Assembly (NCBI GenBank): GCA_964020085.1
Contig: OZ026604.1
Location: 22,110,232 to 22,174,231 of the forward strand
Source of the DNA: Micromussa lordhowensis
Taxonomy: Eukaryota; Cnidaria; Anthozoa; Scleractinia; Lobophylliidae
Length of the DNA stretch: 64,000 nucleotides
Reading direction: 5' to 3'
The notes below the pieces were generated by a model. That model ran no database searches, was not told where the DNA came from, and saw only the letters and a list, made by a program, of their open reading frames with translations. A program made the position numbers and the translations under genes. Within the stretch, counting starts at the first letter, position 1. Every line of letters begins with the position of its first letter. Positions 545-9,160 of this stretch are shown in pieces.

Positions 545-2837
545 TTACAGCAAAGATTCCTTCATGAAACTAACAGCCCTCTGGCCACGTTTAGTTTTGG
601 GACCAGGCTTCGCCTCGCCTTGTTTCGTCAGCGCTAGATACCAGTCTGTATTGAGCATGGACTGATACGAGGTGCACTGGGTCCCACAAATCTCTTTGAA
701 GACGCATTCTGGCCGAGATGGGCAGGTCTGTATATAAAATAAAATAATGGAATAGGATTGAGTTGAGTAAGATCAAAACTTAACGAGTAACAAGACGAGC
801 AAGTTATTTGCATCGTATAAAGAAAAATCGTACCCCACCCTTATCAGTGATACCTGGTTATTCTGAACGCTACTGTTCTTTAGACAATTCCAGGTTGAAG
901 TACACCTCAATTCAAAACCAGAGAGTTCTCACTTACTGTGGAATATAACTCTCCGTTTTCACTCATGGCAATGTATTTTCCTGCAGCTTTTCCCTTAATC
1001 ATGACCACACCAGCCTCCATGAACTCCATCACAAGAAAAACTATTGACAAAGAAACGGATTAAGTACTGCATATCACTGCAGGAGCCAGCTGCAACTTGT
1101 TTCATTTATTAATTCAAATTTGTATATCATGGAGCAACTGCAGGGAGCTGCTGGCTGACGTCAGACAACACAGCAGCCATTAGTACTCCAGCTAATAGGT
1201 CGACCTGCAGCCTTGGTTTATATATTTGATTTTGGAAATCCACGCTTTGGAAAATTGACACCTGTCAAAACAAAGTATCCGCTGACCAGTATGAACGTGA
1301 CCATATTGTGGGCTCAAGTTTAGATTTCACCTAGGTCAGGTGTTTTTGAAGTTGACCGTTCCCCAAGTACCGGTTTTCGATTGGATCGTAGGCTCAAGCC
1401 AGGTTAACTTAATAAAACAGTGGGACATCGTTGGCGGGAAAGCGTTTTTCATCGACTTGGAGTTAATAAAGGTAAACTAATCGCAGAAGCGAGTAACAGA
1501 AGATTTGCCTAGCCAGTTCTGGTTTTCTCTTTTTCTGATCAATTCGTGCGAAGCCATCTATACACTCGGGCATTGTGGTGTAGTGCATGTCTCAATTTAT
1601 TCAAGATCTACTTCCAAGCCATCTTTTTAAAAAACAGTATACAGCGCCCGGCGAGGTCAAAAAGATAAATGAAAGAAGTGAAATCATCAACAATGAGGTA
1701 TGATTTTGATGTTCCACCAAATTATCTAAATTAACACTGAAAGCGGAATAATGGCCGACAATCGATTGGAAAGAAAAACAAATCCATCACCGTCATTGTG
1801 GATTTCTTTTTCGTGTCTGGCTACACGTAGAAACTGATATATTTTCAATAACAGTCAGAATTAATTCCTTTTTTTAGTTCAGTTCAAGACCTAGTAACTC
1901 AGTTCGTGATGACCACATCAAAAATATATTTTTTATTGGCACTCGGCGTTTTCGCATGCAAATCTTGATTTCTTGAAACTGAAAAATGCATAAGCCATGT
2001 AGATTTAAAAAGCGATAGGGAAGTAAATCATCAAAAATTCTTCAAGTCTCCTGAAATTTTGAATTATTACACAAAAAAGCACCCAAGTGCATTTTCAGCA
2101 AGATGTAAAATGTTTCTTCCACAAGACAAGGTTTTGCAATTTTTCAAATGGTGTTTCGTTTGTTAATTACTATCGAAGATGTATACAAAAAGGTTAACGG
2201 ACTTGTTAAAATATATACCAGAGACAGTCACTTTCCTATAGAAACACTGCAGATGGCTATGAGCCTTGAATAACAATAAGGACAATGATAGAAATTTTGC
2301 TTCAAAATGAAAACATTTTTAATCATCTCGGTCACTTCGCATGGGTGATAACAGGTTAAATTACTTGCTTCGAGATGAAAGTACATTAGATCATTTCCGT
2401 CCCCAGATTGAAATACCAATACTCCTACATTCACTTACATTTCCTTTAATGTAAGTTTAGAGAATATCACTCTATGTGAAGGCGACATCCTTTCCTCGCT
2501 GATGATTCTCTTTAATCTCCTCACCTGCCTACTTGACAATTGCAACATTGCAAAGAGAAATTAGAAGTTGATCGCTCTTGGAAATACTGAATGGCTATCA
2601 GTGCAAAGGAATCACTTCAGTTGTGCCTGGGTTACAATTTCAAGGCGCGAATTTAACTCGCAGCCATTTTGAAAGTTATGTGTTACATCATACTTAGCGA
2701 AATAAATTTCTGTACTCACTGTAAATATCATTTTCGTTGCGGCTTCCCTGTACGCCGTTCTCGGTGACTCGGAGATAGAAGCCATGACTGCATTTTAAAT
2801 GCTTCGGTGAGGACGTATCGGGCGTGAAATGAACCAT
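545..2837 (-). CDS. Fibroblast growth factor-like protein, 3 exons (tandem copy 1)
   Basis: The spliced model joins exons 2720-2837, 937-1040 and 545-727 on the minus strand, giving 134 residues. Donors are GTGAGT and GTAAGT and acceptors are AATAG and ATACAG. The intron phases are 1 and 0, and the central exon is exactly 104 nt, the size typical of vertebrate FGF middle exons. FGF core motifs appear in order: HGFYLRVTENG with an acidic ND-IY end (exon 1), GVVMIKG and KYIAMSENGELY (exon 2), then ECVFKE, DWYLAL and GEAKPGPKTKRGQRAV (exon 3). The last is the heparin-binding loop and holds more Lys/Arg than the neighbouring paralog. ECVF carries the cysteine conserved across FGFs. The product should be a secreted beta-trefoil ligand for FGF receptors with heparan sulfate. 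No signal peptide is visible after the ATG at 2837, so either an upstream exon is missing from the model or export is unconventional, as for FGF1/2. Confidence 0.87.
1790..2165. repeat. Diverged non-coding segment, copy 1 (FGF intron 1)
   Basis: This segment of the first FGF intron resembles 3600-3970 in the same order. Shared blocks include a TTTCGTGTC-like start, a TTTAGTTCAAGAC-like block, a 'cttgaaactgaaaaatgc' block, 'gggaagtaaat', and an end with 'cattttcagcaa' followed by AAATG-rich sequence. I cannot tell an old repeat family from a local duplication that came with the FGF genes. Confidence 0.45.
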
Positions 2838-2965
2838 GTAATTTGTTGTTTTCCAATACACTCAAGATATTTTGAGTGTATGAGTCTAACTTTACTGCAC
2901 ACCTCGATTAATCGTGACCGACACCTATCAAGTTAAAAGAATTTCGTTTCACCCACCCTACGAAT

Positions 2966-8800: not shown

Positions 8801-9160
8801 CTTTATGAAAAGAGAATTTCTTTCATCTGATTATTTACGCTGAACCTTCAACACAAGTTGTGAACAATACAAACAAACGTAAAGTGATCGAAAATTAAAC
8901 TTTAAAACCACGAAGCAGGGCTAATTTGTTTATCCTGGTTTAAGCTCTGATCTTTCATTAGCGAACTTACACTCGTTGTTTAAGAGACCTGTTGGTTAAC
9001 AGTGTCTGTAATAAACAGAAGAATTAAACTTACTGTAAACATCACCGATTTGTTGTTGACTCCCGTCAACCGTGTCATCTGTTACTCGCAAATAGAAGCC
9101 GTGGCGGGAGATTAAGCGCGTCTTTCGGGACACGTTTGTAGTGAGCTGAGGAGAAGTCAT
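5066..9160 (-). CDS. Fibroblast growth factor-like protein, 3 exons (tandem copy 2)
   Basis: The model joins exons 9034-9160, 6338-6441 and 5066-5245, giving 136 residues. Donors are GTAAGT (twice) and acceptors are TTGCAG and CAACAG. Phases (1, 0) and the 104-nt middle exon match the neighbouring FGF gene exactly. Motifs: RHGFYLRVTDDTVDGS and DVY (exon 1), GEIVLRG and NRYIGMDSHGNLL (exon 2), DDCVFKEHHN, GWFLAL and GRAKPGPKTAFGQRAV (exon 3). The heparin-binding loop lacks the extra Lys-Arg found in the tandem copy. The ATG at 9160 has a good context (GCC ATG A). An in-frame TGA lies upstream at 9206-9208, so any signal-peptide exon would have to splice in between. The gene is larger than its twin because introns 1 (2.6 kb) and 2 (1.1 kb) have filled with repeats, including a MITE starting 27 bp beyond the exon 3 edge. 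Confidence 0.87.
5273..5843. mobile_element. 571-bp MITE with long TIRs and TAA target duplication (PIF/Harbinger-like)
   Basis: The ends 'gggcctgtttacatggaggt' and its reverse complement are part of terminal inverted repeats of about 50 bp. The element is flanked by TAA at 5270-5272 and 5844-5846, matching the 3-bp TWA target preference of PIF/Harbinger elements. Internally the motif 'aggcgggttaccccacct' recurs several times. No transposase is encoded, so it is non-autonomous. It lies in intron 2 of the second FGF gene, 27 bp upstream of the exon 3 acceptor edge in transcript sense. Confidence 0.85.
5918..6185. repeat. Inverted-end dispersed repeat (TTTTATCAACTGAGT family)
   Basis: 'tttggttttatcaactgagt' begins near 5921, and an inverted relative ends near 6185 next to 'ttcgaatctttttacggcgg'. 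A second copy of the same family lies at about 60803-60925 ('tttatcaactgagttgataa', then 'agattcgaaagctgacgttt'). The family is abundant in cnidarian genomes as I recall. It is intronic in the second FGF gene. Confidence 0.6.
6882..7125 (+). mobile_element. tRNA-derived SINE, family 1, B box intact
   Basis: The 5' part is tRNA-like, with a B-box sequence GGTTCGAGCC at 6931-6940. It is followed by a tail shared with the copy at 11186-11430 ('tgtgttgtgttctt', 'cccaggtgtataaatgggta', 'aatgctgggggtaaccctgc'). The A-box region is rearranged compared with the other copy. It lies inside intron 1 of the second FGF gene, opposite to the gene. Confidence 0.75.
7433..7744 (+). mobile_element. Non-LTR retrotransposon 3' end (reverse-transcriptase C-terminus remnant)
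   Basis: An open frame of 103 codons matches the C-terminal tail typical of coral non-LTR (CR1/L2-like) reverse transcriptases: TYFSLVECYKIVFGLSHLDF, then a Lys-rich stretch, CFKHSFFIRV, NSLSKDIVEAETLELFKSRL and a final LK-rich end. The polymerase core and endonuclease are absent, so it is a 5'-truncated dead copy. It sits in intron 1 of the second FGF gene on the opposite strand. The frame is intact across the fragment, suggesting a fairly recent insertion. Confidence 0.7.

What the first reader, a model, noticed from the sequence alone, without database searches (positions are those of the whole stretch)
545..9160. Tandem FGF gene pair hidden in small exons
Two complete FGF genes lie head-to-tail on the minus strand, each in three exons too short to stand out as open frames. 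Both middle exons are exactly 104 nt, the phases are identical (1, 0), and core motifs (HGFYLRV, KYIAM or RYIGM, CVFKE, KPGPKT, GQRAV) occur in order. The proteins are clearly diverged, so the duplication is not recent.
Basis: partly seen in the sequence, partly recalled or inferred. Interest (0 to 1): 0.75.

Follow-up and report, generated by a model that had tools for sequence, protein, structure and literature searches.

The report
Old coral FGF gene pair
Two small, intact fibroblast growth factor genes sit side by side in a stony-coral-like genome; the pair is real and old, but it has counterparts in other corals and belongs to a large known gene family, so it is ordinary.

Summary
Spliced as listed, the two minus-strand genes give 136 and 134 aa proteins, both matching Pfam FGF over nearly the whole profile (E 2e-28 and 8.6e-27); their best solved-structure matches are FGF2 and FGF1. 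All four introns are GT-AG, and most coral relatives carry the same joined sequence (one Stylophora model differs at junction 1). The genome (580.8 Mb) has about 20 FGF loci, 12 of them in four clusters, this pair being the smallest. The 104-nt middle exon with phases 1 and 0 is a family trait: 14 of 16 FGF exon-2 hits have it. Gene a has orthologues in both scleractinian suborders looked up; in Oculina, a and b relatives carry consecutive gene numbers. The copies are 40% identical with near-saturated silent sites, so the duplication is old. Neither coded protein has a signal peptide, which suggests FGF1/2-style non-classical release; that is inferred, and an unseen upstream exon is not excluded. 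Verdict: a correct find of an ordinary, conserved gene pair. A syndecan gene lies about 6 kb upstream.

The parts
9034..9160 (-). FGF gene a (distal), coding exon 1, 127 nt, ATG at 9160, ends in phase 1 before GTAAGT
   Evidence: 6 of 7 full-length relatives start at the corresponding Met
6338..6441 (-). FGF gene a, coding exon 2, 104 nt, acceptor TTTGCAG, donor GTAAGT
5066..5245 (-). FGF gene a, coding exon 3, 180 nt including stop TAA; protein 136 aa
   Evidence: Pfam FGF E 2e-28
2720..2837 (-). FGF gene b (proximal), coding exon 1, 118 nt, ATG at 2837, ends in phase 1 before GTGAGT
937..1040 (-). FGF gene b, coding exon 2, 104 nt, acceptor GTCAATAG, donor GTAAGT
545..727 (-). FGF gene b, coding exon 3, 183 nt including stop TAA; protein 134 aa
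   Evidence: Pfam FGF E 8.6e-27
5272..5844 (.). MITE-like element (62-nt terminal inverted repeats, 95% complementary) inside intron 2 of gene a, ending 26 nt before exon 3
   Evidence: the MITE label is my reading

Best explanation
Two intact paralogous FGF ligand genes of the FGF1/2-like, leaderless kind, left by an old tandem duplication and kept side by side in stony corals. Shown: gene structure, FGF domain, relatives in other corals, age, lack of a signal peptide in the coded proteins. Inferred: each is made as a small beta-trefoil cytokine without a signal peptide, leaves the cell by a non-classical route as FGF1 and FGF2 do, is held by heparan sulfate through the retained K.GPKT..GQRA loop, and activates an FGF receptor tyrosine kinase.
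For: Pfam FGF over positions 1-124 and 4-124 of 124. The 60 best PDB sequence matches listed for each protein (of 119 and 124) are FGF2, FGF1, a designed consensus FGF (5zxe) and, for a, one FGF7/FGF1 chimera. AlphaFold models of relatives P0001 (of a, pLDDT 85.9) and P0019 (of b, 81.6) match FGF crystal structures, rank-1 TM 0.85 and 0.81. Relatives of a are annotated 'fibroblast growth factor 1-like' or '2-like' in Pocillopora, Stylophora and Montipora. 6 of 7 full-length relatives of a begin at the same MTS/MAS start. Hydropathy maximum of the N-termini is 0.40 and 0.27 against 2.46 to 2.98 in the exon-1 frames of five of eight paralogues seen.
Against: No transcript of this species was available. 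The Oculina a model starts later (MVRK), and the Stylophora model has four extra residues at junction 1. The two surface cysteines of FGF2 (C78 and C96 of the 8hue entry title) are V and S in a, and A and C in b, and the b cysteine is R in Oculina, so FGF2's own export mechanism is not supported. Several heparin-contact positions differ (KR of FGF2 is TN in a, TK in b). Gene b diverges at FGF2's NYNTY stretch (QCTSY). In three of the five paralogues with a hydrophobic stretch no Met precedes it in that frame, so leaders or starts may lie in separate upstream exons in this family. The tree does not resolve whether a and b are sisters.
Confidence: 0.82

Rival explanations
1. The genes have an unseen upstream exon with a signal peptide and are ordinary secreted FGFs.
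For: Exon 1 of a lies in an open frame that runs 15 codons above the ATG, with possible AG acceptors. Five of eight paralogues carry a hydrophobic stretch in the exon-1 frame, and in three of these (L010, L011, L019) no Met precedes it there, so their start may be in another exon.
Against: In those five the hydrophobic stretch is in the same open frame as the first beta strand, whereas the frames of a and b have none. 6 of 7 full-length relatives of a (Pocillopora, Stylophora, Montipora and three unnamed) start at the same Met. In b a stop lies 8 open codons above the ATG. Three other paralogues (L017, L022, L026) also show no strong leader.
Confidence: 0.15
2. Intracellular FGF-homologous factors (FGF11-14/FHF type), which also lack a signal peptide and do not act on FGFRs.
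For: Leaderless N-termini; FHF1b is rank 2 by fold for the b relative, with TM 0.83, the highest of the 50 rows shown.
Against: By sequence none of the 60 PDB matches shown for either protein is an FHF (60 of 119 and 60 of 124 seen). Only the short core is coded, without long FHF tails (the tails are recalled knowledge).
Confidence: 0.06
3. One of the two is a decaying pseudogene or an assembly duplicate.
For: Gene b has fewer database relatives (9 against 18).
Against: Both frames and all splice sites are intact; the copies differ at 60% of residues, so no assembly duplicate; a b-like exon 3 at 92% identity exists elsewhere (P0021) and Oculina codes a full b relative.
Confidence: 0.04

Closest known systems
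Oculina patagonica ACROYT_G030429 and ACROYT_G030430
   Different: annotated only as hypothetical proteins; the distance and strand there were not seen
Coral 'fibroblast growth factor 1-like' and '2-like' (Pocillopora verrucosa, Stylophora pistillata, Montipora capricornis)
   Same: 69-72% identical to a over 97-100% of its length, leaderless, same start
   Different: Stylophora model has four extra residues at junction 1; whether a b gene lies beside them was not tested
Vertebrate FGF1 and FGF2
   Same: best solved-structure matches by sequence, and among the best by fold; no signal peptide; 104-nt middle exon (last two points recalled for the vertebrate genes)
   Different: 34-36% identity in most fold alignments of the relatives; FGF2's two surface cysteines are not kept; subfamily placement not resolved
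Nematostella FGFs (13 to 15 genes; PMC3420111 section 2.1 read, PMC10781443 passages read)
   Same: expanded anthozoan FGF set with six genes said to fall near FGF1/2 with low support
   Different: no Nematostella sequence was aligned here; relations to NvFgfa1/NvFgfa2 not tested

Membership tests
FGF family (PF00167) | Full FGF domain above Pfam's cut-off | tested here: met
   99.3 and 94.0 bits against 24, positions 1-124 and 4-124
FGF family (PF00167) | Beta-trefoil fold | tested here: met
   tested on relatives P0001 and P0019, not on the window proteins; the 50 fold hits shown for each are FGF-family chains, rank-1 TM 0.85 and 0.81
FGF family (PF00167) | Three coding exons with a 104-nt middle exon, phases 1 and 0 | tested here: met
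   both genes; 14 of 16 FGF exon-2 hits scanned in the genome
FGF family (PF00167) | Binds heparan sulfate and activates FGFR | not testable with these tools
   K.GPKT..GQRA loop kept; contacts partly changed
FGF1/2 subfamily | No N-terminal signal peptide | tested here: met
   for the coded frames: hydropathy scan, 6 of 7 relatives of a start alike; no dedicated predictor was run and an upstream exon is not excluded
FGF1/2 subfamily | Groups with FGF1/FGF2 in a tree | tested here: inconclusive
   one FGF2 row falls beside the coral clade but the fork has 39/43 support, on 98 columns
FGF2-type non-classical export | Surface cysteines C78 and C96 | tested here: not met
   V and S in a; A and C in b; the b cysteine is R in Oculina

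The most novel reading that the evidence does not exclude
A coral-specific pair of leaderless FGF ligands kept for a long time beside one of the genome's two syndecan matches, so that two growth factors and a heparan sulfate co-receptor form one co-regulated block. Only the adjacency in this one genome is shown.
Probability: 0.07. Interest if true: 0.4.

Novelty: new member of a known kind. Interest (0 to 1): 0.15.

Why it matters
It adds a well-delimited FGF pair to a coral genome and suggests that leaderless FGF1/2-like ligands are old in stony corals. It helps anyone curating coral FGF sets, because the small exons are easily missed. It changes no general view: tandem duplicates make up almost a third of the genes in two well-assembled corals (PMC10236652, abstract passage and section 12 read).

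Tried and rejected
The idea that identical 104-nt exons mark a special pair was rejected: 14 of 16 FGF exon-2 hits share the structure. An earlier count said 15 of 17; that was a miscount.

A recent or assembly duplication was rejected.

A third copy nearby was looked for in the window and in 9,932 bases beyond its low end and not found. A whole-genome search with protein a gave no other close copy (best outside the pair 43% over exon 3, at C6 5.51 Mb). The same search with protein b did not complete.

Literature searches for a described coral or cnidarian FGF pair and for the 104-bp exon (no paper) showed no paper on this pair among the titles listed. Most subscription papers are not in the library, and Matus et al. 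2007 was not held.

I lowered the best explanation from 0.85 to 0.82 and raised the first rival from 0.10 to 0.15 for this.

Full report
What is there. The window is bases 22,110,232 to 22,174,231 of contig C10 in a 580.8 Mb assembly of 1,383 contigs. Gene a lies at 9160-5066 and gene b at 2837-545, both on the minus strand, each in three coding exons. A script spliced them into open frames of 136 and 134 aa with phases 1 and 0; all four introns are GT-AG. Pfam gives one family for each, FGF, at 99.3 and 94.0 bits. Against the PDB, 119 and 124 distinct sequences match; the 60 shown for each are FGF2, FGF1, a designed consensus FGF (5zxe) and, for a, one FGF7/FGF1 chimera.

Are the junctions right? 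No RNA of this species was available. Indirect support for a: P0001 and P0009 encode the protein uninterrupted on contigs of at most 1,608 and 1,695 bases, while the gene here spans 4,095 bases from ATG to stop, so those contigs are spliced or retrocopied forms (inference). For b, Oculina codes a full 132 aa relative (P0019), and in Pocillopora damicornis two gene models cover exons 1-2 joined (P0035) and exons 2-3 joined (P0020) at the predicted places. These are annotations, not proof. Against: the Stylophora model P0006 has four extra residues at junction 1, and the Oculina a model P0002 starts later.

Is the pair special? The genome search for FGF gave 24 matches, which I group by position into 20 loci; one, at C7 33.01 Mb, has a TGA inside its match. 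Twelve lie in four clusters: four loci at C1 21.81-21.99 Mb, three at C4 31.06-31.08, three at C7 33.01-33.03, and this pair. A scan of the 16 exon-2 hits in the window and fetched loci found a 104-nt, phase 1/0 exon in 14; the next most frequent length, 108, in 10 of 16, probably comes from the second GT of the GTAAGT-type donor (my reading). The exceptions are a 101-nt exon with a GC donor (L022) and a 107-nt exon (L024). A further exon-2-like frame in L013, below the HMM threshold and not in the 16, fits 107 and not 104. The 104-nt exon is therefore a family trait here; that vertebrate FGF1 and FGF2 share it is recalled knowledge.

How old? a and b are 40% identical; NG86 gives dN 0.52 and dS 2.04 (the second method failed), and 17 of 29 fourfold sites in shared residues differ. 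blastn between the two regions found only short weak matches (best 31 bases, E 4e-5, in opposite orientation; the next, at E 0.002, lies in exon 3). Relatives of a at 69-79% occur in Oculina, Pocillopora, Stylophora and Montipora; the taxonomy places Oculina and Pocillopora in suborder Vacatina and Montipora in Refertina, so a predates that split if these are orthologues, as the tree suggests. b relatives are in Oculina and Pocillopora damicornis. Oculina carries both with consecutive gene numbers. Two further unnamed sources show a-like and b-like exons with equal longest-contig lengths (P0032 and P0021, 557,968; P0033 and P0066, 1,654,178), which suggests but does not prove linkage. In a tree of 28 rows and 98 columns a falls with the other a genes (100/100), b with Oculina and Pocillopora b (100/99), and both in a coral clade with P0028-P0030 at 86/97. 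Five of the 20 loci were left out because only one of exons 2 and 3 was in hand, among them C6 5.51 Mb, the nearest outside match to a. Direct sisterhood of a and b is not resolved.

How it likely works. Neither protein has a hydrophobic N-terminus (maximum 0.40 and 0.27 over 11 residues). Of eight paralogues whose exon-1 frame was seen, five reach 2.46 to 2.98 (L010, L011, L016, L018, L019), but only in L016 and L018 does a Met precede the stretch in that frame; L017, L022 and L026 show no strong leader (1.19, 0.43 and 1.11 after the relevant Met). So leaderless-looking FGFs are not confined to this pair, and starts in separate upstream exons are possible in the family. 6 of 7 full-length relatives of a start at the same Met. 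AlphaFold models of P0001 and P0019 match FGF structures; the 50 hits shown for P0001 are FGF1, FGF2, FGF9 and one FGF7/1 chimera, those for P0019 are FGF1, FGF2, FGF9 and, at rank 2, FHF1b. The stretch around residues 121-130 is poor in both models (pLDDT 59 and 52). The simplest reading is a leaderless FGF1/2-like ligand. Against a full FGF2 analogy, the two surface cysteines are not kept and some heparin contacts are changed. Non-classical release of leaderless factors is the subject of PMC3914728 (search listing and start of abstract seen only).

Literature. Anthozoan FGF expansions are known: 13 FGF genes in Nematostella (PMC3420111, section 2.1 read) and 15 transcripts (PMC10781443, passages). 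The latter reports Fgfa2 absent in Scleractinia; I did not test it. An Aiptasia scaffold with three FGF and seven FGFR gene models is described in PMC4772690 (passages). Tandem duplicates are 29.9% and 32.6% of genes in two corals (PMC10236652, section 12); a search of its main text for FGF or fibroblast found nothing. So the finding is correct and ordinary.

Noticed in passing
window 15353-16333 (-): A 327-codon open frame (first Met is codon 5) with a signal-peptide-like start and a syndecan transmembrane/cytoplasmic domain (E 6.9e-11), about 6 kb upstream of gene a on the same strand. It is one of two syndecan matches in the genome, the other at C10 27.31 Mb. Syndecans are heparan sulfate co-receptors of FGFs (recalled), so the adjacency is curious; conservation was not testable.
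   Followed up: partly
window 5272-5844: MITE-like element with 62-nt inverted ends and internal repeats of CCGCCTAGGCGGGTTACC, in intron 2 of gene a, ending 26 nt before exon 3.
   Followed up: no
window 22427-48650: A group of family C (metabotropic-glutamate-like) GPCR frames on both strands, one a 974-codon uninterrupted frame.
   Followed up: no
window 62973-63601 (+): Minisatellite-like repeated frame (HTSYSSFLHPLPSQTSREIHEANTQ-type units) open in two frames.
   Followed up: no
genome C1 21.81-21.99, C4 31.06-31.08, C7 33.01-33.03 Mb: Three further FGF clusters (4, 3 and 3 loci). In the exon-1 frames seen, L010, L016, L018 and L019 have a hydrophobic stretch and L017 does not. L010, L013, L021 and L030 contain N.
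   Followed up: partly
L022 4845-5475 (-), genome C9 10.26 Mb: Another FGF with a leaderless-looking exon 1 and a 101-nt exon 2 ending in a GC donor; its exon 3 was not found in L022 or in the next 10 kb, L029.
   Followed up: partly
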